DNA from: Melioribacter roseus
GTDB lineage: Bacteria > Bacteroidota > Ignavibacteria > Ignavibacteriales > Melioribacteraceae
Assembly (NCBI GenBank): GCA_020724265.1
Contig: DYHH01000006.1
Coordinates: 62,001-126,000, forward strand
Length of the DNA: 64,000 nt
Direction: 5' to 3'
Below are positions 4,385 through 13,627 of this stretch, one piece after another (the first letter of the stretch is position 1; every line of letters begins with the position of its first letter). Made by a program: the position numbers and the translations under genes. Below the pieces are notes generated by a model that was given only the letters and a program-made list of their open reading frames with translations, did not search any database and was not told where the DNA came from.

Positions 4385-5231
4385 GATAGTTAATTATTTC
4401 CTGCAGTTACTTGAAGAAAACAACATCAATTATATGTTCAGCAGTAATCTAATTAAGCATAAAGATAAACTGCGTTATAAGGGTAGTGCCAACTTTAAAA
4501 GTATAAAAGATTTAGGCGAACTTTCCGATGTGATCGTTTCTTTCGGTGGTGACGGTACAATGCTGCATATCGCATACGAACTTCGCGGTTCTAAGGCTCC
4601 TATCTTAGGATTGAATCTTGGTAAATTGGGATTCTTAGCCGAATATGAAATGAAAGAAATTCCCGAACTGGTTAAAGAGTTAAAAGAGAATAAGTTTGTT
4701 ATTGAAGAGAGAATTGCGCTAAAAGGATTCAATTCTCTAAAGAAAGAAGAAGAATTTTACGCTATAAATGATTTGGTTATTGATAAAGGTAGATGGCAGA
4801 AGATGATTGAGTTGACTGTAAAAGTAGATAATGATTATGTTGCAACTTTTGTTGCCGATGGAATTATTGTTGCAACACCAACCGGTTCAACAGGCTATTC
4901 ACTCTCTACGGGGGGACCGATTGTAAACCCTAAAGCTGATGTTATTACTATATGTCCTATCTCCCCGCACACTTTAACGATGCGTCCATTAGTAATTTCA
5001 AGTGATCAAAAAATTGAGATAGAGGTACACTCCGCCTACGAGAATGTACAAGTTAATTGCGATGGTCAGCGGGTTTATTATTACCAGTCTCCCGCAACAA
5101 TTGAAATATTCAAAAGCGATATACCTGTTCGATTGGTTCATTCAAACAGAATAAGTTATTTCGAAATCTTAAGAAATAAACTTATGTGGGGGTTGGATGT
5201 TAGAAAAAATAATTCAACGAAGAAAAATTAA
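4338..5231 (+). CDS. nadK: NAD kinase
   Basis: Phosphorylates NAD to NADP in the cytoplasm. At 297 residues it is of normal length. The diagnostic GGDGTML motif (residues 70-76) is the phosphate-donor site, with GLNLGKLGFLAE behind it, and the conserved region around ATPTGSTGYSLSTGGP and the TMRPLVI stretch complete the C-terminal NAD-binding beta domain. The ATG at 4338 is chosen because MLIGIIPN is the normal first strand of the fold and a purine-rich AAGGAAGAT lies just upstream. This makes the gene overlap the end of the GT2 gene by 47 bases. Its 3' end overlaps the next gene by 35 bases. Confidence 0.95.
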   Translation: MLIGIIPNIEKPNIFEIVNYFLQLLEENNINYMFSSNLIKHKDKLRYKGSANFKSIKDLGELSDVIVSFGGDGTMLHIAYELRGSKAPILGLNLGKLGFLAEYEMKEIPELVKELKENKFVIEERIALKGFNSLKKEEEFYAINDLVIDKGRWQKMIELTVKVDNDYVATFVADGIIVATPTGSTGYSLSTGGPIVNPKADVITICPISPHTLTMRPLVISSDQKIEIEVHSAYENVQVNCDGQRVYYYQSPATIEIFKSDIPVRLVHSNRISYFEILRNKLMWGLDVRKNNSTKKN

Positions 5232-5730
5232 TCTATCCGGATTATTGTTTCTACTTTTTATATTTGCGTCATCTCTTTTTTCACAAGAAGGCATTATTGT
5301 AATTGACGAAGCGTCCGGTAAATACATGCCGCTTGGTAGATTCGACCGTTCCGTCTTCCTTGATTCAAATTTTGTTGATTGGTTTAATGAGGAATATAAT
5401 TCCTACACAATAAACGAGAATGCCTTACGTGATATAATGATAGAGGTAGAGGATGTATATGTTAAAATTGTTATGGGAACCTGGTGTAGCGATAGCAGAA
5501 GGGAAGTCCCTCGTTTTTATAAAATCTTGGATGCACTAAATTTTGATAAAAACCATGTAGATTTAATTTGTGTAGATAAAGCCAAAGTGGGTTTAGATGA
5601 TGAAGTTGACGGACTTGATGTTTACTTGGTTCCTACTTTTATCTTTTTTAAAGAAGGGAAAGAACTTGGGCGTATTATAGAATCACCTAATGATTCACTT
5701 GAAAAAGATTTTGAAAATATTTTAAAATAA
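5197..5730 (+). CDS. Exported thioredoxin-like protein (single-cysteine WCSDS type)
   Basis: Small (177 residues) thioredoxin-fold protein. A hydrophobic segment (about 13-27, ending ASSLFSQ) after a basic N-terminus looks like a Sec signal peptide, so it probably acts in the periplasm. The active-site position reads GTWCSDSRREVPRF: one Cys followed by Ser-Asp-Ser, not CxxC. The cis-proline region LVPTFIFF and the GRI strand of the fold are present. Proteins with this WCSDSR signature are common in Bacteroidota and are annotated only as thioredoxin family. A single cysteine argues against ordinary disulfide cycling. It overlaps the nadK end by 35 bases and is the last gene of the transcription unit. 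Confidence 0.75.
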   Translation: MLEKIIQRRKINLSGLLFLLFIFASSLFSQEGIIVIDEASGKYMPLGRFDRSVFLDSNFVDWFNEEYNSYTINENALRDIMIEVEDVYVKIVMGTWCSDSRREVPRFYKILDALNFDKNHVDLICVDKAKVGLDDEVDGLDVYLVPTFIFFKEGKELGRIIESPNDSLEKDFENILK

Positions 5731-5762
5731 AAAACCTTCACAAAAAATCACGTGAAGGTTTT
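5731..5762. terminator. Bidirectional intrinsic terminator
   Basis: A perfect 11-bp inverted repeat, AAAACCTTCAC paired with GTGAAGGTTTT, separated by a 10-base loop, begins immediately after the stop of the thioredoxin-like gene. A-runs on the left and T-runs on the right make it usable from both strands. It sits between two convergent units, the polysaccharide/nadK run and the kamA operon. Confidence 0.9.
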
Positions 5763-5778
5763 CTATTTTAATTAAATA

Positions 5779-6957
5779 CTAATTTTTAGAAGCAGTTATC
5801 TCAACAGTTTGCAGCTCTTCAATCTTCTTAAACTTTTTCGGAGCTTTTGTTTTACCATTTCCGTTATTTTTTCCTACTTCTATTTTAATTTCACTGTTCT
5901 TTATTTTCGTTTTGTGTTCCTTAATTTCTCTATAAACATATACTTCATTTTTATAGTTACGAAGTACAATTCGATCTTCATCTTGATGTAGAACATAATT
6001 TGGTATTAAAGGAATCTTACCACCGCCCCCGGGAGCATCAATAACAAAATGAGGAATTGCAAGTCCGCTGGTATACCCGCGTAACTTGTTAATAATATCC
6101 AAACCGGTTTGAATAGAAGTCCGGAAGTGACTTGCCCCTTTAGTCTCATCAGCCATAAAAAGGTAATAAGGTTTAACGCGTATCTTAAGAAGTTTTTGGA
6201 ACAACTCCATAAGAATTTCGGCATTATCATTAACACCTTTCATCAATACAGCCTGGTTTTGAACCGGGCATCCGGCATTAGCGAGCATTGTACAAGCCTG
6301 TGTGCTTTCTTTGGTTATCTCCCAAGGATGATTAAAATGAGTATTTACATATATAGGGTGATACTTCTTTATCATCTCGCATAATTTAGGTGTGATTCTT
6401 TGCGGAAGAACACAGGGCATTTTGGTACCGAGGCGGATTATTTCAACATGAGGAATTGATCTTAAACGCTGTAATATTTTTTCCAGCATTGTATCTGTCA
6501 ACATAAGAGGATCTCCGCCGGAGAGTATTACGTCACGAATTTCCGTGTGCTGCTCTATATAATTAAAAGCTGATTCCAATTCCTTCATAGAAATTTTTCC
6601 GGAGTCGCCAACTTTTCTTTTACGTGTACAAAATCTGCAATACATACCGCATTGACTTGTAACAAGAAAAAGACATCTATCCGGATACCTATGAGTAATA
6701 TTCGGAACCGGGCTCATTGCATCCTCATTCAGAGGGTCTTCGAAGCCGTCCATATCATCAAGTTCAATTCCGTCGGGAACACATTGAAGCCAAATCGGAT
6801 CACCGGGATAACGGATTAAGCTTAGGTAATATGGGTTAATTCTAGCTTGAAAAAATTCATCGAGATCTTCAGCGACTTTTTTATCAATATTAAATTTCTC
6901 GACGAGCTGATCAACGGAATGCACGCTGTCGCGTATCATTTGTTGCCATAGTTCCAT
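5779..6957 (-). CDS. kamA: Lysine 2,3-aminomutase (radical SAM, PLP)
   Basis: Radical SAM enzyme converting L-lysine to beta-lysine with a 4Fe-4S cluster, SAM and PLP. In the 392-residue protein the cluster cysteines are C103, C107 and C110 (CGMYCRFC), SGGDP lies at 146-150, and the PLP lysine is K314 in APGGGGK. D270 and D307 sit at the same spacing (37 and 7 residues) as Asp293, Asp330 and Lys337 of the clostridial lysine enzyme, where the two aspartates hold the substrate ammonium, so lysine is the likely substrate. The last 50 residues are a Lys-rich, low-complexity tail. It is the last gene of a four-gene operon with two ATP-grasp ligases and an acetyltransferase. No beta-lysine fermentation genes (kamD/kamE) or epmA are nearby, so neither lysine degradation nor EF-P modification is supported. 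Confidence 0.9.
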   Translation of the reverse strand: MELWQQMIRDSVHSVDQLVEKFNIDKKVAEDLDEFFQARINPYYLSLIRYPGDPIWLQCVPDGIELDDMDGFEDPLNEDAMSPVPNITHRYPDRCLFLVTSQCGMYCRFCTRKRKVGDSGKISMKELESAFNYIEQHTEIRDVILSGGDPLMLTDTMLEKILQRLRSIPHVEIIRLGTKMPCVLPQRITPKLCEMIKKYHPIYVNTHFNHPWEITKESTQACTMLANAGCPVQNQAVLMKGVNDNAEILMELFQKLLKIRVKPYYLFMADETKGASHFRTSIQTGLDIINKLRGYTSGLAIPHFVIDAPGGGGKIPLIPNYVLHQDEDRIVLRNYKNEVYVYREIKEHKTKIKNSEIKIEVGKNNGNGKTKAPKKFKKIEELQTVEITASKN

Positions 6958-6968
6958 TGATTTTTCCT

Positions 6969-7448
6969 TTATTTTGTTAAGTATTTACCAAATATGATTA
7001 GGTTATCGTTAACCTTGTAAAAATTTTTTATTTCAGCTAGAACTTCGTAATTGTTTTTAAGATAAAATTTTCTTGTTGCTTCATAACTTGGTTGTGATGA
7101 TGTTTCAGCTAAAACCAAGTAACCTTTTTCTTCTTTAATAAATTTTTCAGCATGTTTTAATAATTCTTTCCCGATACCTTTGCCTTGAAACTTTGCATTA
7201 GTGACAATCCAATATAAATCAAATGTACCCTCTGTCATGTATCTTTTGCCAACACAATGATAACCGATGGCTTTGTTGTCAAACTCGTAAATAAAAATGT
7301 TGTAACTATACTCATCTTTTTGTTTATTCTCAAGAGTTTCTTCAATTAATTCTATTGCAGTAACTTTTTCATCAGGTTTAAAAATATCGATGCCGTTGAT
7401 TACTTCTATTAAATCCGATCTGTCTCTTTGTTCAAGTCTTCTTATCAT
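6969..7448 (-). CDS. GNAT-family N-acetyltransferase
   Basis: Acetyl-CoA-dependent N-acetyltransferase of 159 residues. The acetyl-CoA pyrophosphate loop is QGKGIG at residues 88-93, following the LYWIVTNAKF strand, and the C-terminal half keeps the SSQPSYEATRKFYLKNNY region typical of motif B. It abuts the stop of the upstream ATP-grasp gene with no spacer and lies 11 bases ahead of kamA, whose AAAGGA ribosome site is in that gap. The context suggests an amino group on beta-lysine or a beta-lysine product as acceptor. It is much shorter than the known beta-lysine acetyltransferase AblB (about 270 residues), so it is not a plain ablAB osmolyte pair. Confidence 0.8.
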   Translation of the reverse strand: MIRRLEQRDRSDLIEVINGIDIFKPDEKVTAIELIEETLENKQKDEYSYNIFIYEFDNKAIGYHCVGKRYMTEGTFDLYWIVTNAKFQGKGIGKELLKHAEKFIKEEKGYLVLAETSSQPSYEATRKFYLKNNYEVLAEIKNFYKVNDNLIIFGKYLTK

Positions 7449-8483
7449 CTAACTTGCTCTATTTAATGCAAAGTGAATGAGCTTATTAATTAGTTCATTA
7501 TAATCTATACCTGCCGCTGAAGCTGAACGAACAAAACCCGAATCCGGTGAAATGTCAGGATTCGGATTCACTTCAATTACATAAGGATGATTATTTTTTG
7601 CTAAACGAATATCAACACGAGCATAATCTCTACATCCCATGGCACTAAATGCTTCAAGCGCCATACTGCTTACTTTTGCAGAAACTTCTTTGGATAATTT
7701 TGCCGGACAAATAGGAAGAGTATGTTTGTAATATTCACTCTCAGGTGACCATTTAGCTTCATAAGTGATAATTTTGGGTAACTTTCTTGATAACCCTTTA
7801 AAAGTAATTTCGGATATCGGTAAAACATCATTGCCAAGAATTGATACGTTCAGTTCACGACCATTAATAAACTCTTCAAAAATAATATCTTGCTTGAAAT
7901 TTCTGAAAAGGTAATTCATTCTTTCTTCCAGATCATTTCCGTTGTGAACAACAGAATCTTCGGAAATTCCAATACTTGCATCTTCACTTAACAATTTTAC
8001 AATTAATGGAAACTTCAATTCCGAAATATCCAATGGCTCTTTTGATTTGTAATAAGCAACAATAAATTTCGGTGTAGGAATACCTGAACCGATTAAAATA
8101 CGTTTTGTGCGCTGCTTGAATAAACAATTACCTAAAGTCAATCCATTGTTGCCGGTGTATGTTATATTCATCATTTCAAAAATTCCTGCACAGTAACTTT
8201 CAAAATGAGAATTACCTTCAACCGACTCTATTAAGTTAAGTACTGCATCTGGTTTATTTGCTCGCAGTTCTACAAAGAATGATTTAATATTTTTATTAAC
8301 AGGATATCCTCTTACATTCATAAAATTCTCGGAAAGACTTTCGATGATATTATCAATCTGCTCAACAAATCCTTTTTCCGAAAGATCAATTTTTTGGGGG
8401 CTTGCAGATTCTTTCCCCAGATAATTTTCGTAGATAGATTTAGGTTCGTTATAACAGACTAAAATATTTTTATCAAACATCAT
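7449..8483 (-). CDS. Ddl-like ATP-grasp ligase (second of pair)
   Basis: ATP-grasp carboxylate-amine ligase, 344 residues, related to D-alanine-D-alanine ligase. The N-terminal domain is divergent. The ATP-grasp core shows FPLIVKLLSEDASIGI, the lid region FEEFINGRELNVSI and the metal-binding end DYARVDIRL...YVIEVNPNPDIS. The serine-rich loop is DASIGI instead of GSSxGI, so substrate choice probably differs from Ddl. The N-terminal part lacks the HGxxGEDG loop of true Ddl. The gene overlaps the upstream ligase by 4 bases (ATGA) and abuts the GNAT gene. It most likely joins an amino acid (perhaps beta-lysine) to a carboxylate in the same pathway; the product is unknown. Confidence 0.8.
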   Translation of the reverse strand: MMFDKNILVCYNEPKSIYENYLGKESASPQKIDLSEKGFVEQIDNIIESLSENFMNVRGYPVNKNIKSFFVELRANKPDAVLNLIESVEGNSHFESYCAGIFEMMNITYTGNNGLTLGNCLFKQRTKRILIGSGIPTPKFIVAYYKSKEPLDISELKFPLIVKLLSEDASIGISEDSVVHNGNDLEERMNYLFRNFKQDIIFEEFINGRELNVSILGNDVLPISEITFKGLSRKLPKIITYEAKWSPESEYYKHTLPICPAKLSKEVSAKVSSMALEAFSAMGCRDYARVDIRLAKNNHPYVIEVNPNPDISPDSGFVRSASAAGIDYNELINKLIHFALNRAS

Positions 8484-9538
8484 GCGAGTCCGTTTCTTTT
8501 TAATGCCACTTGTAAAACTTCATTTACCATCTGTGTGTAATCCATACCGGCAGCTCTTGCAGCTTTCGGATAGCATGAATTATCATCCGGGTTTGGCAAC
8601 ACACCCGGCAACGGATTTACTTCAATAATATTTGGTTCTCCATTTGCATCTAATCGAACATCAATTCTACTCCAGTCTTTGCAATTTAGAACCGAATAAG
8701 TTTTTAGAACTATTTCATTAATCTTGTTATACAATTCGGTATCAATTTGCGCTGGACAGGAAAAAATATCTAAAGGATTATCTCTTGTATCTAATATCCA
8801 TTTTGCTTCGTATGAATAAATTGGAATCATGTCTTTAGGTAGTTCCGAAAAATTCACTTCAACAATTGGCAAAGTACGAGTTTCATTTCCGTTACCTAAA
8901 ACTGCAACTGTAAATTCTCTTCCCGGTAAATATTCTTCTACAATAAAGGGTTGATTGTATTTTTCAACATTTTCAATTAAAGTTTTTGTAAAAGTTTCAT
9001 AATCGTTTACAAAGGACGAATTAAAAATTCCTTTGCTAGATCCTTCGCCGATCGGCTTTAAAATAAGAGGGAAGTTAAGTTCCTTACCGGCAAAACCGTT
9101 TTCGCCGTGTGAAACAACAAACTTTGAGTTTGGTATTCCGTAGTAGGTTAGTACTTCTTTGGTACGTGATTTATCTAAACATAAACTAAGAGTTAAAGGA
9201 TCAGAACCGGTATAAGGAATTTGAAGCATATCCAGTATTGCCGGGATTTGTGCTTCCCTGCTTATTCCGTGTGCACCTTCGGCAACATTGAACACAATAT
9301 CTGGTCTAAGATTTCTAAACTTTTCATAAGCATCTTCGTTTGCTTCAATCATAATTACGTTATGATGCACAGCTAAAGCATCTCGTATAGCGTAAATCGT
9401 TTCATAAGTATCCCATTCGGCATATTTATCAAGCAAACTTTCGGATTGAAGATAACTTTGGGTTGAGTTGTTAGAAACTTTTGTTGGGACTTCCGGTTTG
9501 ACATTATATGTAAGTGCAACAGTAAACTTTTTTATCAT
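8480..9538 (-). CDS. Ddl-like ATP-grasp ligase (first of pair)
   Basis: First gene of the kamA operon, 352 residues, an ATP-grasp ligase closer to Ddl than its neighbour. FNVAEGAHGISREAQIP occupies the place of the Ddl HGxxGEDGxIQ loop, and IPYTGSDPLTLSLCLDKSRTKEVL matches the following Ddl helix. LILKPIGEGSSKGI is the ATP/serine loop, and SRIDVRLDANGEPNIIEVN carries the Mg-binding residues. The essential wall-synthesis Ddl normally sits with mur genes, which are absent here, so a specialised ligase is more likely than the housekeeping enzyme. The two ATP-grasp genes look like an old duplication that diverged. The gap to recG holds a short hairpin over the ribosome site. Confidence 0.82.
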   Translation of the reverse strand: MIKKFTVALTYNVKPEVPTKVSNNSTQSYLQSESLLDKYAEWDTYETIYAIRDALAVHHNVIMIEANEDAYEKFRNLRPDIVFNVAEGAHGISREAQIPAILDMLQIPYTGSDPLTLSLCLDKSRTKEVLTYYGIPNSKFVVSHGENGFAGKELNFPLILKPIGEGSSKGIFNSSFVNDYETFTKTLIENVEKYNQPFIVEEYLPGREFTVAVLGNGNETRTLPIVEVNFSELPKDMIPIYSYEAKWILDTRDNPLDIFSCPAQIDTELYNKINEIVLKTYSVLNCKDWSRIDVRLDANGEPNIIEVNPLPGVLPNPDDNSCYPKAARAAGMDYTQMVNEVLQVALKRNGLA

Positions 9539-9540
9539 AG

Positions 9541-9560
9541 TAAGGAATAAAAATTCCTTA
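9541..9560 (-). promoter_or_regulatory. Perfect palindromic hairpin over the ribosome-binding site
   Basis: TAAGGAAT and ATTCCTTA form an 8-bp perfect stem around AAAA, 2 bases upstream of the ATG at 9538. The only Shine-Dalgarno-like sequence (AAGGAA on the minus strand) lies inside the stem, so folding of the mRNA would mask it. This may set or regulate translation of the operon. Alternatively it could be a weak end for recG transcripts, but there is no T-run after it in that direction. Confidence 0.5.
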
Positions 9561-9571
9561 AAAAGTTAGTA

Positions 9572-9601
9572 GCAATATAAAAGTTTAACAATCATATGCA
9601 A
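9572..9601 (-). promoter_or_regulatory. Possible weak promoter of the kamA operon
   Basis: On the minus strand TTG is followed after 19 bases by TATATTGC, a partial fit to the Bacteroidota TTG/TAnnTTTG pattern. It is about 34 bases upstream of the first ATP-grasp gene, and the transcript leader would consist mostly of the hairpin at 9541-9560. The surrounding 123-base gap after recG is otherwise very A/T-rich without a convincing terminator, so read-through from recG is also possible. Confidence 0.3.
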
Positions 9602-9661
9602 CAACATAATGAAAATTTTTTTTGTGAAAAACTTTTTTAAAAAATAATTTTTTAGAAAAAT

Positions 9662-11839
9662 TTATGCGATGTGAGAAAACTTTAAGGAAGTATAGTAATT
9701 TTTTTTGAGTTGACGTTTTATAATTTGGTTTTCACTTGAAGAAAGATTGGGATCATTAAGTATTATATTGAAGGCATCATTCTTTGCAGCAATAAGAATA
9801 TCCGTATCATTTATTATGTCTGCATGTTTTAGTTGTGGAAAACCGCTTTGTTCTATTCCGAAAATATTTCCAGGACCACGAAGTTTAAAATCTATCTCCG
9901 ATAATTTAAAACCATCATTATGTTCTACCATTGCATTTAGTCTAATCTGAGATTTATATCTTTCTATTTCTGCGGGTGAAAGATATTCCAAGGAAAAATT
10001 TTTACGTTTCGTTTTTCGAATTAATTCGTCTCGAGTAACCAAAATACAGAATGATTGCTTGTCGCTTCTTCCAACTCTGCCTCTCAGCTGATGTAACTGA
10101 GAAAGACCAAATCGAAATGCTTCATTAATTACTATTATAGTTGCATTCGGTATATCGATTCCAACTTCAATTACTGTGGTAGAAAATAAAACATCAAATT
10201 TATTTTTGGAAAAATCTTCCATAATAGTTTCTTTTTCCTGCCAGTTCATTCTTCCATGAATTAAATTTACTCGAGTATCGTCAAGGTATGTGTTTTTTAT
10301 AATTTCAAATTCACTAGTAACATCCTTTAGATCAATTTTTTCAGATTCTTCAACTAACGGGTATACTATAAAAGCTTGTTCACCATTTTTAACTCTTTCT
10401 TTTATGAAAGAAAATATTTCGGGAAGATTATTTTCGCTTCTTATAACGGTCGTAATCTTTTTCCGGTTCTTAGGCATTTCATTAATTACCGATACATCAA
10501 GATCACCATAAACCGTCATTGAAACAGTCCGGGGAATTGGAGTTGCAGTCATTATCAAAACATCAGGAGATATTACTTTCTCAATCAATTTAGAGCGTTG
10601 AGCGACACCGAATCGATGTTGTTCATCAATTACTACAAATCCCATATGCGGAATTTCTACATTCTCTTCAAGTAACGCATGCGTTCCGACAATTATATTG
10701 ATTTTATTTTCTGCTATACCATTTAATATTGTTTTACGTGTTTTGTTAGTTTGTCCCCCTAACAGTAAAGCAATTTTAAAATCAGTACTTTCCAAAAGTG
10801 AATGAATATTTTTAAAATGCTGATCTGCTAAAATTTCAGTTGGCGCCATTAAAACTGCTTGATATCCATTACTTACTGCAATTAACATAGCAATTAAAGC
10901 AACTATGGTTTTACCGCTTCCAACATCACCTTGCAGCAATCTATTCATTGGTTCGTTGCTTTCCATATCTTTTCTAATTTCGGATAAGACTTTTAATTGG
11001 GCTTGTGTTAATTGGAAAGGAAGATTTTTTATAAAACTTTTTATCGGTTCAGGATGAATGTTAAATTTTATCCCGTCCTTTTTAATTTTCATTCTTACTT
11101 TTTTCAATGCGATAAGGCATTCTAAAAAAAACAACTCCTCATATTTAAATCTTTGTTTTGCTTTTTCGAGAGAATTATTATCAACAGGGAAATGATAATC
11201 TTTTATAGCAGTATTCTTTGGAATCAGATTATTTTTAACGATAATGTCTTGCGGAAGAGTTTCAGAAATTAAATCGGCGTATTCTTCCACAACAGTTGTA
11301 ATAATTTTTCTTAAACTAATATCACCCAGATTAGTTGATTTAAGTTCTTTGGAAATTCTATAGAAAGGTATGATCTTCCCGGTATTTAAAAATTCTTCGG
11401 ATTCAATTGCTGATATTTTATCAAAATCGGGATGAATAAGTTGAAGGTTACCATATCTAGTCATTACCGGCTTAGCCGATACGGCATAAATATCATTAGT
11501 ACTGAAAATATCTTTAAAAAATTTAATTCCCTGAAACCATACACATTCAAAAAAACCGGCGTTGTCTTTCATTTTGACTTTAAATATCTTCTTCTTGCCG
11601 TAACGTATTAATTCACTTTCAACAACTTTGCCTATTATTGTAACTTCACCTTCATATCCATTCATAACGTGTTGAGCAACTTTTGCCGAGTTTAGAATCG
11701 TAGTTCTATCTAAATGTTTAGTGGGGAAATAATGCAATAGATCTTCAACGTTGATAATTCCAATTTTGCTGAATGCTTGTGCACGTTTAGGACCAACAGA
11801 CTTGATATACTGAACCGATGTTGAAAGATCTCTTTTCAT
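9662..11839 (-). CDS. recG: ATP-dependent DNA helicase RecG
   Basis: Branch-migration helicase that regresses stalled replication forks and processes recombination intermediates. At 725 residues it is full length. The N-terminal wedge/OB region starts with YIKSVGPKRAQAFSKIGI. The helicase core has Walker A LLQGDVGSGKTIVALIA, the DEQHRFG box (about residue 404), MTATPIPRT, TTVIEVGIDIPNA and the C-terminal QLRGRVGRS. It is separated by 63 bases from gpsA upstream and by a 123-base A/T-rich gap from the kamA operon downstream. Nothing unusual was noted. Confidence 0.97.
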   Translation of the reverse strand: MKRDLSTSVQYIKSVGPKRAQAFSKIGIINVEDLLHYFPTKHLDRTTILNSAKVAQHVMNGYEGEVTIIGKVVESELIRYGKKKIFKVKMKDNAGFFECVWFQGIKFFKDIFSTNDIYAVSAKPVMTRYGNLQLIHPDFDKISAIESEEFLNTGKIIPFYRISKELKSTNLGDISLRKIITTVVEEYADLISETLPQDIIVKNNLIPKNTAIKDYHFPVDNNSLEKAKQRFKYEELFFLECLIALKKVRMKIKKDGIKFNIHPEPIKSFIKNLPFQLTQAQLKVLSEIRKDMESNEPMNRLLQGDVGSGKTIVALIAMLIAVSNGYQAVLMAPTEILADQHFKNIHSLLESTDFKIALLLGGQTNKTRKTILNGIAENKINIIVGTHALLEENVEIPHMGFVVIDEQHRFGVAQRSKLIEKVISPDVLIMTATPIPRTVSMTVYGDLDVSVINEMPKNRKKITTVIRSENNLPEIFSFIKERVKNGEQAFIVYPLVEESEKIDLKDVTSEFEIIKNTYLDDTRVNLIHGRMNWQEKETIMEDFSKNKFDVLFSTTVIEVGIDIPNATIIVINEAFRFGLSQLHQLRGRVGRSDKQSFCILVTRDELIRKTKRKNFSLEYLSPAEIERYKSQIRLNAMVEHNDGFKLSEIDFKLRGPGNIFGIEQSGFPQLKHADIINDTDILIAAKNDAFNIILNDPNLSSSENQIIKRQLKKNYYTSLKFSHIA

Positions 11840-11902
11840 GTATAGATTTGTTATAAAGGTAACTAAAATATAATTGATTTGATAAAGATATGGAAGGAGA
11901 GA

Positions 11903-12901
11903 TCAATGTTCGGATTTCATATCGCGAGTCATCAACTCATAAGTCATTTTCTGAGGATCTCGATTTTCATGCAAAGTTTTATAGACAGCTTCTATAATCG
12001 GAGTATCTACTTTTGCTTGAATGGCTAAATCACGAGCGGATTTTGCAGTAACTACCCCTTCGGCAACCATGTTCATCGATTTTAGAATGTCTTTGAGTTT
12101 TTTCCCTTTACCGATTTGTTCGCCGACATATCGATTTCGGCTGTGTCGGCTCATACAAGTTACAATCACATCACCAATACCCGAAAGCCCGGAGAAAGTT
12201 TCCGGTCTTGCACCAAGTTCAATACCAAGTCTTGAAATTTCCGCAACGCCTCTTGTCATAATAGCTGCTTTGGTGTTGTCACCAAACTTAGCTCCATCAA
12301 CTATACCGGCACCGATAGCTATTACATTTTTTAAAGCGCCGCCTAATTCAACGCCAATAATATCAGTTGATGAATATACTCTAAAATAAGAAGTCATGAA
12401 AGCTGCTTGGATTTGTTCCGCTGTATTAATACTCTTTGATGCAGCGACTACCGCAGTAGGGATTTTTTTAGCAACTTCCTCGGCATGGCTGGGTCCGGAA
12501 AGTACTCCTATATTTTCATCGCGAATATTTTTTAATACATCTTTGATAATTAATGAAACAGTTAGAAGTGTTTCTGTTTCAATACCTTTTGCTACACTCA
12601 CGAGAATTGTATCGGTGAAATCTACCTTTTTCATTTTTTGCAAAACACTTCTTACAAATTGAGAAGGTACAGCCAATATAATCATATGCATATTTTCAAC
12701 TGCGTCTTCTAATGAGTGAGTAACTTCTATTTCTTTGGGGATTTTAATTCCGGGTAGGTAAATTTTATTGAACCGGGTTTTACTTAAACTTTTTGCATAA
12801 GCCTTTTTGTATTCCCAAAGGGTTACATCATGACCATTGTTGTGTAACACAATTGATAGGGCAGTACCCCATCCGCCTGCACCTAATACCGATATTCGCA
12901 T
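11903..12901 (-). CDS. gpsA: Glycerol-3-phosphate dehydrogenase [NAD(P)+]
   Basis: Makes sn-glycerol-3-phosphate from dihydroxyacetone phosphate for phospholipid synthesis. It has 332 residues with the N-terminal Rossmann motif VLGAGGWGTALSIVL, VSVAKGIE, GPSHAEEVA, the catalytic-lysine region GGALKNVIAIGAGIVDG and the C-terminal SGIGDVIVTCMSRHSRN block. Its ATG shares one base with the stop of plsY directly upstream. The two enzymes perform consecutive steps (glycerol-3-phosphate formation, then acylation), so coupled expression is expected. Confidence 0.97.
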   Translation of the reverse strand: MRISVLGAGGWGTALSIVLHNNGHDVTLWEYKKAYAKSLSKTRFNKIYLPGIKIPKEIEVTHSLEDAVENMHMIILAVPSQFVRSVLQKMKKVDFTDTILVSVAKGIETETLLTVSLIIKDVLKNIRDENIGVLSGPSHAEEVAKKIPTAVVAASKSINTAEQIQAAFMTSYFRVYSSTDIIGVELGGALKNVIAIGAGIVDGAKFGDNTKAAIMTRGVAEISRLGIELGARPETFSGLSGIGDVIVTCMSRHSRNRYVGEQIGKGKKLKDILKSMNMVAEGVVTAKSARDLAIQAKVDTPIIEAVYKTLHENRDPQKMTYELMTRDMKSEH

Positions 12902-13572
12902 TACTTAGATTTTTTCTTATTGAAAAGAGTAATTCTGCTTTCACTCCCGTTTAATAATCTACCAACATTTGCACGATGAGTATAGATTACTAATAATGCT
13001 AATAATATTGCGAAAGGAAGTATAGTGTGATATCCTGAAATTTCTACGTGAAATATATTTTCACGAATTATTAAAATAAGAGGAACAGAGATAGCAGCTA
13101 AAATTGAGCCGAGCGAAACATATCGTGATACGGTGACTACAAGAAAGAATACCCCCAAAGCAATAAACATATCTACTGTAATAATTGCTATTAAAAAACC
13201 AAGTGATGTTGCAATTCCTTTACCGCCTTTGAAACCGGCAAAGATGGTCCAAATATGACCAACAACAGCAACTAAACCTGCAATAATCTGAACAAGAGTA
13301 AAATCATCAAAAGGAGTTGCATTCGGGAAAGGGAAGTTCCCAAGATAAAGACGTGCGATGAGAATAACCGCAACAGCACCTTTCAATGCATCTAAAATTA
13401 TTGTAAGAACACCATATTTCCATCCAAGCACACGGAAAACATTTGTGCCTCCTGCATTTCCGCTACCATGTTGACGTATATCAATTCCTTTTACACCACG
13501 AGCAATTAATATGCTTGTAGGTATTGAACCGACAAGGTAAGCTAAAATTACTATTATAATTAGATTTAACAT
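12901..13572 (-). CDS. plsY: Acyl-phosphate:glycerol-3-phosphate acyltransferase PlsY
   Basis: Integral membrane acyltransferase adding the first acyl chain to glycerol-3-phosphate from acyl-phosphate. The 223-residue protein has about five hydrophobic helices and the three family motifs: GSIPTSILIARGVKGIDIRQHGSGNAGGTNVFR, in parts, near residues 15-50, GHIWTIFAGFKGGKGIATSLG around 105-125, and the C-terminal THRANVGRLLNGSE. It overlaps gpsA by one base and lies 55 bases after ispD. Length and motifs are normal. Confidence 0.96.
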   Translation of the reverse strand: MLNLIIIVILAYLVGSIPTSILIARGVKGIDIRQHGSGNAGGTNVFRVLGWKYGVLTIILDALKGAVAVILIARLYLGNFPFPNATPFDDFTLVQIIAGLVAVVGHIWTIFAGFKGGKGIATSLGFLIAIITVDMFIALGVFFLVVTVSRYVSLGSILAAISVPLILIIRENIFHVEISGYHTILPFAILLALLVIYTHRANVGRLLNGSESRITLFNKKKSK

Positions 13573-13627
13573 CTCAATATCCCAGATATAAAGACAAAGT
13601 TATATAAATGAATTTGATTTTGCAATC

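What the first reader, a model, noticed from the sequence alone, without database searches (positions are those of the whole stretch)
5779..9538. Uncharacterised four-gene operon: two Ddl-like ATP-grasp ligases, GNAT acetyltransferase and lysine 2,3-aminomutase
The four genes are translationally coupled (ATGA overlap, zero spacing, 11-base gap). KamA keeps both lysine-binding aspartates (D270, D307), so beta-lysine is the probable product. Known fates of beta-lysine are fermentation (kamDE), EF-P modification (epmA), the osmolyte N-acetyl-beta-lysine (ablB), or antibiotics made by NRPS; none of these partner genes is here. Two different ATP-grasp ligases plus an acetyltransferase suggest ribosome-independent assembly of an acetylated beta-lysine-containing di- or tripeptide, perhaps an osmolyte, a wall cross-bridge or a signal. 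The product is inference.
Basis: partly seen in the sequence, partly recalled or inferred. Interest (0 to 1): 0.75.

Follow-up and report, generated by a model that had tools for sequence, protein, structure and literature searches.

The report
Conserved beta-lysine peptide-making operon (predicted)
A group of little-studied bacteria keeps four genes together that look like an assembly line which turns lysine into beta-lysine, acetylates it and links it to other amino acids without the ribosome; the product has not been identified, so the operon offers a clear target for finding a new bacterial metabolite.

Summary
Four intact genes (LigA 8480-9538, LigB 7449-8483, GNAT 6969-7448, KamA 5779-6957, all minus strand) are coupled as described. 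The same order occurs in 30 of 32 class-level loci, window included; the other two are cut by contig ends. Among 148 sampled genomes of the phylum, LigA and GNAT share 26, each appears without the other once, and KamA is in the same 26. In five genomes outside the class all four are present but unlinked, so the link is more than frozen gene order. Neither ligase is the housekeeping Ddl, which lies elsewhere, passes Ddl cut-offs that both fail, and differs at two active-site positions. KamA keeps both lysine-specificity aspartates. No EpmA over its cut-off and no AblB were found. Best reading: ribosome-independent assembly of an acetylated beta-lysine peptide. Its structure and role, osmolyte or otherwise, are inference. 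A second pair, LigC plus a C39-like peptidase gene, is found only in genomes with LigA.

The parts
8480..9538 (-). LigA: Ddl-like ATP-grasp ligase, 352 aa, first gene of the operon
7449..8483 (-). LigB: second Ddl-like ATP-grasp ligase, 344 aa, start overlaps the stop of LigA by 4 bases
6969..7448 (-). GNAT N-acetyltransferase, 159 aa; nearest solved structure by sequence 2r7h
5779..6957 (-). KamA: predicted lysine 2,3-aminomutase, 392 aa; CxxxCxxC from 103, PLP lysine K314, specificity residues D270 and D307
5723..5770 (-). terminator-like hairpin directly after KamA (consensus match only; 1 found against 2.4 expected in shuffles)

Best explanation
The operon encodes a small, ribosome- and NRPS-independent pathway. 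KamA isomerises L-lysine to beta-lysine. Two specialised Ddl-family ATP-grasp ligases each activate a carboxylate as acyl phosphate and form one amide bond. GNAT blocks one amine (probably the side-chain amine) with acetyl. The product would be an acetylated beta-lysine-containing di- or tripeptide, probably kept in the cell, since none of the four genes is an exporter, carrier protein or NRPS. Shown: the gene set, its conservation, intact catalytic residues, and that the ligases are not the housekeeping Ddl. Inferred: substrates, order of steps, product and role.
For: Order kept in 30 of 32 class-level loci, with differing downstream neighbours. Co-occurrence of all four in 26 of 148 genomes, including 5 in which they are unlinked; joint absence in 14 of 36 class genomes, two of them in the window's own family. 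KamA residues CCC/D/D/K identical in 30 of 30 class KamAs read, window included, and in the 4 KamAs read from the unlinked genomes. E and W at two Ddl active-site positions in 72 of 72 LigA-, LigB- and LigC-type ligases, H and Y in 16 of 16 Ddls; LigA keeps the acceptor-side serine in 33 of 33, LigB in only 12 of 28, so the two probably take different acceptors (the roles of these positions are recalled). Own Ddl passes three Ddl cut-offs that LigA and LigB fail. Ddl fold for LigA (best Z 31.6). A separate ligase clade, LigR, co-occurs with KamA in 13 of 13 genomes. KamA lies near an ATP-grasp gene in 3 of 6 plasmid KamA regions displayed.
Against: No product, substrate or expression data. KamA scores below the curated AblA cut-off (458.6 of 525.4), though above that of the general KamA family. 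Co-occurrence is confounded by common descent. G087 has the GNAT without LigA or KamA. G005 has a ligase scoring in the LigR range but no KamA over the cut-off; the tree put that ligase outside LigR. Fourteen genomes have KamA without LigA or LigR. The ligases might act on a scaffold (wall, lipid, protein) rather than make a free peptide.
Confidence: 0.5

Rival explanations
1. It is a variant of the N-epsilon-acetyl-beta-lysine osmolyte pathway: KamA plus this GNAT make the known compatible solute, and the ligases extend it or act on something else.
For: Same first two reaction types as AblA/AblB; no AblB found in the genome, so this GNAT could replace it. Acetyl-beta-lysine osmolytes are known in archaea and bacteria, and a beta-lysine gene can sit under a Na+ riboswitch (PMC9337991, passages read; its reference 43 names green sulfur bacteria).
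Against: GNAT gave no AblB-family match at E 0.001 in NCBIfam. No Rfam match near the operon at E 0.1. The ligases co-occur as tightly as the GNAT. The isolate names of 3 of the 10 records suggest hot-spring, deep-mine or borehole origin rather than saline habitats (my recall of the names).
Confidence: 0.17
2. The ligases attach beta-lysine or a derivative to the cell wall, a lipid or another envelope polymer.
For: Ddl-family enzymes serve wall synthesis; other ATP-grasp ligases make wall cross-links (PMC2922099, passages read).
Against: None of the four genes is a wall, lipid or flippase gene, and the downstream genes differ between families (neighbours judged by eye, most not run against family libraries). 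The genome keeps its own Ddl.
Confidence: 0.12
3. The product is a secreted signal, siderophore or antibiotic.
For: ATP-grasp ligases and aminomutases occur in such clusters (recalled); a Thioflavicoccus plasmid has diaminopropionate-type genes beside a Ddl-like ligase and KamA; an Azospirillum plasmid has an aminomutase beside NRPS and polyketide genes.
Against: No exporter, receptor or regulator was recognised by eye as conserved beside the four genes (not a systematic search); the mostly vertical, class-wide pattern fits a core metabolite better.
Confidence: 0.12
4. KamA serves EF-P beta-lysylation, with one ligase replacing EpmA.
For: EF-P is present with a lysine in the GKG loop; no EpmA over its cut-off.
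Against: KamA is below the EpmB cut-off (252.3 of 369.3). That lysine is probably also present in many EF-Ps that carry no beta-lysine (recalled). Two ligases and a GNAT are not explained.
Confidence: 0.05
5. LigA or LigB is an ordinary D-Ala-D-Ala ligase and the grouping is incidental.
For: Both match the Ddl C-terminal Pfam domain; LigA's model has the Ddl fold.
Against: Both are below the cut-off of every Ddl model shown, while the own Ddl elsewhere in the genome passes three; separate from the Ddl branch with 100/100 support; H and Y active-site positions changed.
Confidence: 0.03

Closest known systems
AblA/AblB N-epsilon-acetyl-beta-lysine pathway
   Same: KamA-family aminomutase with both lysine-specificity aspartates, paired with a GNAT
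   Different: No AblB found in the genome; two ATP-grasp ligases added; KamA below the AblA cut-off
N-acetylglutaminylglutamine amide (NAGGN) osmolyte synthesis (recalled, no call)
   Same: An acetyltransferase and an ATP-grasp ligase make an acetylated dipeptide without ribosome or NRPS
   Different: NAGGN genes start from glutamine and use an asparagine-synthase-like partner; here the start is lysine and there are two Ddl-like ligases
D-alanine-D-alanine ligase (Ddl)
   Same: Fold (LigA) and catalytic core residues K, R, D, E, N
   Different: Separate clade; H63-equivalent is E and Y216-equivalent is W (E. coli DdlB numbering recalled); below Ddl cut-offs
EpmA/EpmB EF-P beta-lysylation
   Same: Aminomutase family and beta-lysine as likely product
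   Different: No EpmA over its cut-off; ligases and GNAT instead
KamA plus ATP-grasp pairs on rhizobial and Thioflavicoccus plasmids
   Same: Aminomutase gene beside an ATP-grasp gene
   Different: Rhizobial KamAs have C at one specificity position and a longer ATP-grasp; no GNAT annotated in the displayed regions (PLSDB gene tables are incomplete)

Membership tests
Lysine 2,3-aminomutase (AblA, TIGR03820) | Score above the curated cut-off | tested here: not met
   458.6 bits against 525.4
Lysine 2,3-aminomutase (AblA, TIGR03820) | CxxxCxxC cluster, PLP lysine and the two lysine-binding aspartates | tested here: met
   C103, C107, C110, K314, D270, D307; all conserved in 30 of 30 class KamAs read, window included
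KamA family (TIGR00238) | Score above the curated cut-off | tested here: met
   312.1 bits against 199.2
Acetyl-beta-lysine pathway (AblB, TIGR03827) | AblB acetyltransferase in the genome | tested here: not met
   0 matches at E 0.001 in the own genome; over the cut-off in 3 of 14 control genomes
EF-P beta-lysylation | EpmA lysine aminoacylase | tested here: not met
   Best hit 255.3 bits, below 286.9, in a 529-codon frame, taken to be LysRS by its length
EF-P beta-lysylation | EpmB equivalog score | tested here: not met
   252.3 bits against 369.3
EF-P beta-lysylation | EF-P with lysine in the GKG loop | tested here: met
   PGKGGAF in the own EF-P
D-alanine-D-alanine ligase | Curated score of Ddl models | tested here: not met
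   NF002378: LigA 195.3 and LigB 159.6 bits against 243; control, the own Ddl: 334.5, and over the cut-off of two more models
D-alanine-D-alanine ligase | Conserved active-site His and Tyr (DdlB H63, Y216, recalled) | tested here: not met
   E and W in all 28 LigA and all 28 LigB compared; H and Y in 16 of 16 Ddls
D-alanine-D-alanine ligase | D-Ala-D-Ala synthesis | not testable with these tools
   needs an enzyme assay
Lysine fermentation via lysine 5,6-aminomutase (KamDE) | PF09043 subunit in the genome | tested here: inconclusive
   0 matches, but the control genomes gave none either
NAGGN osmolyte synthesis | asnO and ngg genes | not tested
   named as an analogy only, from recall

The most novel reading that the evidence does not exclude
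A new class of beta-amino-acid peptide metabolite made by paired Ddl-derived ligases. It would be a core trait of 22 of the 36 class genomes sampled and of some relatives, extended in many of them by a third ligase and a C39-like peptidase, with a sister version in other families of the phylum that uses a different beta-amino acid.
Probability: 0.38. Interest if true: 0.72.

Novelty: new variant of a known kind. Interest (0 to 1): 0.57.

Why it matters
Beta-lysine has few known fates. A conserved pathway that seems to build beta-lysine into a peptide with ATP-grasp ligases would add a new one, would give four to six uncharacterised gene families a shared function, and can be tested by expressing four small genes.

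Tried and rejected
Ordinary Ddl: rejected. EF-P modification via EpmA: disfavoured, as no EpmA passes the cut-off. Classical AblB pathway: AblB not found. Lysine 5,6-aminomutase search: uninformative, its control stayed silent. Rfam elements in window 5200-13600: none at E 0.1. Promoter scan: 16 sites against 18.8 expected by shuffling, so no information; terminator scan: 1 against 2.4.

Plasmid neighbourhoods, told in full: of 3 LigA-like plasmid regions displayed, 1 has KamA (L011; not L009, L010). Of 6 KamA regions displayed, 3 have an ATP-grasp gene near (L011, L093, L095; not L092, L094, L096). Of 4 GNAT regions displayed, 3 show no ligase or KamA and 1 has no annotation. In a quick tree the ligase of L011 falls on the LigB/LigC side (support 0.83) with E and W at the two positions; those of L009 and L010 are poorly placed and have E and Y.

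The GNAT structure model is useless (mean pLDDT 45.9 from 3 sequences). The LigA model (mean pLDDT 77.0) is poor at residues 16-41, 89-93, 166-173 and 236-254, so no pocket comparison was made. The fold look listed only Ddl and Van-type ligases among its 50 rows; that excludes no other family.

Paper searches: in nine searches I recognised no description of this operon in the listings (titles and starts of abstracts, at most 20 shown): searches gave 0 papers, 25 gave 1, 33 gave 2, 63 gave 117, 64 gave 21, 87 gave 41, 91 gave 13, 92 gave 436. A tenth, covered acetyl-beta-lysine osmolytes (56 papers). Passages were seen in four papers; the Melioribacter roseus genome paper (PMC3534657) holds neither 'lysine' nor 'aminomutase' in its main text. 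Only open-licence papers are held. The 2009 amidoligase survey by Iyer and colleagues (recalled) was not held and may mention such a neighbourhood.

Rows left out: L042, L043, L046 and L050 were left out of the ligase tree, so 28 of the 32 class-level loci are in it. LigR was taken as 13 genomes, 12 of them placed by the tree and G008 by its score (its region was not fetched); G005, with a score in the same range, was left out because the tree set it apart. LigR rests on a long branch with odd composition, so its sister place to LigA is unsure.

Outside the class, only plasmids and one phylum could be searched.
Full report
Observation. The window lies in a genome of 3.77 Mb in 56 contigs, at G000:C39:62001-126000. 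Its nearest named relatives are records titled Ignavibacteria, Ignavibacteriales and Melioribacter. Four minus-strand genes read, in order of transcription, LigA (352 aa), LigB (344 aa), GNAT (159 aa) and KamA (392 aa). LigA and LigB overlap by 4 bases, LigB and GNAT abut, GNAT and KamA are 11 bases apart, and recG ends 123 bases upstream of LigA. A terminator-like hairpin follows KamA (one found against 2.4 expected in shuffles, so the scan alone is weak evidence).

Is it a unit? One search read 37 loci. In 32 class-level loci (the window, 10, 20 and the first region) the four genes occur in the same order and strand in 30. The two misses, L042 and L054, are cut by contig ends inside GNAT and LigB. 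The other 5 loci, from genomes outside the class, hold LigA alone. Some loci are near-duplicates (for example L043 and L052), so 30 is not 30 independent cases. recG precedes the unit in 27 of 32. The genes after KamA differ between families: DnaG-like, amylase-like and others, judged by eye from the protein starts. The conserved unit is therefore just these four genes.

Co-occurrence. The same 148 genomes of the phylum were searched with LigA, with the KamA family model and with GNAT. A LigA at E 5.7e-97 or better is found in 27 genomes, GNAT (E 1e-8) in 27, and KamA over the family cut-off in 53. LigA and GNAT share 26. The LigA genome without GNAT and KamA is G043, whose contig ends within LigB; the GNAT genome without LigA and KamA is G087. 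KamA is in the same 26, and in 27 genomes without LigA, 13 of them with LigR (Fisher 1e-26 for LigA-GNAT, 3e-13 for LigA-KamA; these ignore common descent). The stronger evidence is twofold. First, in five genomes outside the class (four of family f30, plus G086) all four kinds of gene are present, including a LigB/LigC-type ligase, but in scattered places, on different contigs or about 29 kb or more apart. Second, 14 of 36 class genomes lack LigA, GNAT and any KamA over the cut-off together, and each shows only one ligase match at E 1e-20; for 6 of the 14 that match was placed in the tree, and all 6 are Ddls. Two of the 14, G009 and G062, belong to the window's own family. Four KamA or GNAT hits in class genomes were reported with a stop inside the match (G014, G035, G051, G089). 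By position in the fetched loci these stops lie before the start codon or at the gene's own end.

The ligases. A maximum-likelihood tree of 101 ligases puts 16 housekeeping Ddls, the own genome's included, on one branch (100/100). On the other side are LigA (28 rows, one side of a branch, 100/96), its relatives in f30 and G086, LigB with LigC (LigC lies within LigB), the LigB/LigC relatives of f30 and G086, one odd row (G005), and LigR. LigR is the ligase of other families outside the class and sits as sister to LigA with moderate support (99/79) on a long branch. The E. coli DdlB positions H63 and Y216 (numbering and roles recalled) are H and Y in 16 of 16 Ddls, but E and W in all 72 LigA, LigA30, LigB, LigC and LigS30 sequences; LigR has E in 12 of 12 but G (11) or D (1) at the second. 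The catalytic-core lysines, arginine, aspartate, glutamate and asparagine remain in the window's two ligases. LigA-type rows keep the acceptor-side serine in 33 of 33; LigB has S in 12, T in 4, A in 11 and a gap in 1 of 28. The own Ddl passes three curated Ddl models (for example 334.5 against 243), while LigA (195.3) and LigB (159.6) do not. This suggests substrates other than D-alanine, and different acceptors for LigA and LigB. An acidic residue in place of H63 would suit a donor with an extra amine such as beta-lysine; that step is inference. The LigA model has the Ddl fold (best match 8evv, Z 31.6, rmsd 2.4 over 298 residues).

KamA. The window protein aligns with 2a5h over residues 4-344. 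The cluster cysteines, PLP lysine and both specificity aspartates are conserved in 30 of 30 class KamAs read, window included, and in the 4 KamAs read from the unlinked genomes (L117-L120; the fifth, G133, was not read). By contrast, all 12 KamAs read from 11 of the 13 LigR genomes and from G096 (L084, L105-L109, L111, L113, L114, L116, L121, L124) have Q in place of the first aspartate. The one of them scanned scores best as an arginine 2,3-aminomutase, below its cut-off (463.3 of 600). So LigR plus KamA looks like a sister system with a different beta-amino acid. LigR occurs in 13 genomes, all with KamA; of the other 108 non-LigA genomes 14 have KamA. In the three f14 loci read, the LigR-KamA pair is followed by an unassigned membrane protein (no Pfam match) and TrkH- and TrkA-like genes (named by eye; positions). 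A relative of the membrane protein follows KamA in L105 and L108, but no Trk-like hit was seen in L105-L108. This is a possible osmotic hint for one family of the sister system, not for the window's.

GNAT. Its nearest solved relative by sequence is 2r7h, deposited as a putative D-alanine N-acetyltransferase (E 7e-20). None of the NCBIfam families it matches reaches its cut-off.

What the genome lacks. The best hit to the EpmA model is below the cut-off and of LysRS size. EF-P has its loop lysine. No AblB match. The lysine 5,6-aminomutase search cannot be read, because its controls were silent.

A linked second locus. The own genome has a third ligase of this family, LigC (G000:C26), divergent from a 278-aa gene that weakly matches peptidase C39 (19.5 bits, below the cut-off of 22; its relative in G004 matched nothing). 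Relatives of that peptidase-like gene occur in 18 of 148 genomes. In 17 of these 18 it lies beside a LigC-like hit; in G136 the two are on different contigs. All 18 are LigA genomes; 9 of the 27 LigA genomes lack it. LigC was placed in the tree for 6 of the 18; the rest are judged by position. The peptidase-like partner may trim or turn over the product; that is a guess.

Mechanism. Lysine to beta-lysine (KamA, well supported), two amide ligations (LigA, LigB; chemistry well supported, substrates unknown), and one acetylation (GNAT; target unknown) give a small acetylated beta-lysine peptide. As none of the four genes is an exporter, carrier protein or regulator, an intracellular metabolite seems likeliest. 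An osmolyte or thermolyte is the first role to test, by analogy with acetyl-beta-lysine (PMC9337991, passages read) and NAGGN (recalled). Against a salt role: the isolate names of 3 of 10 records suggest hot-spring, deep-mine or borehole origins (recall), and no riboswitch or other Rfam match was found beside the operon.

Novelty. I recognised no description of this operon in the listings of nine paper searches, open-licence texts only and at most 20 titles each. The 2009 amidoligase survey (recalled) could not be read. The enzyme kinds are known and their combination appears new: a new variant of NRPS-independent ATP-grasp peptide synthesis.

Noticed in passing
L083:6291-8277 (G000:C26:56290-58276): Third ligase of the family (LigC) divergent from a C39-like peptidase gene; the peptidase-like gene is in 18 of 148 genomes, beside a LigC-like gene in 17 of them, all genomes that also carry LigA.
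   Followed up: partly
L084:212-5998, L109:7058-12856, L124:1983-7775: In family f14 a LigR-KamA pair is followed by an unassigned membrane protein and TrkH- and TrkA-like potassium-uptake genes (named by eye); this KamA has Q at a lysine-specificity position.
   Followed up: partly
L011:2557-8038 (Thioflavicoccus mobilis plasmid): Diaminobutyrate transaminase, SbnA-like and ornithine cyclodeaminase-like genes in a row with a Ddl-like ligase, and KamA convergent beside it: possibly a diaminopropionate peptide cluster.
   Followed up: partly
L093:5488-8092 and L095:5950-8409 (rhizobial plasmids): KamA next to an ATP-grasp gene; these KamAs have C at one specificity position, so perhaps another substrate.
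   Followed up: partly
L110:3509-5781, L112:4977-7267, L123:6117-8408: In family f19 the LigR ligase sits directly beside a threonine dehydratase-type gene (Pfam run for L110, the others alike by eye), while KamA was found on other contigs.
   Followed up: no
G000:C14:26068-27156 and G000:C35:39348-40388: Two further KamA-like radical SAM proteins below the family cut-off (frames of 765 and 470 codons), with similar hits in several relatives; function not examined.
   Followed up: no
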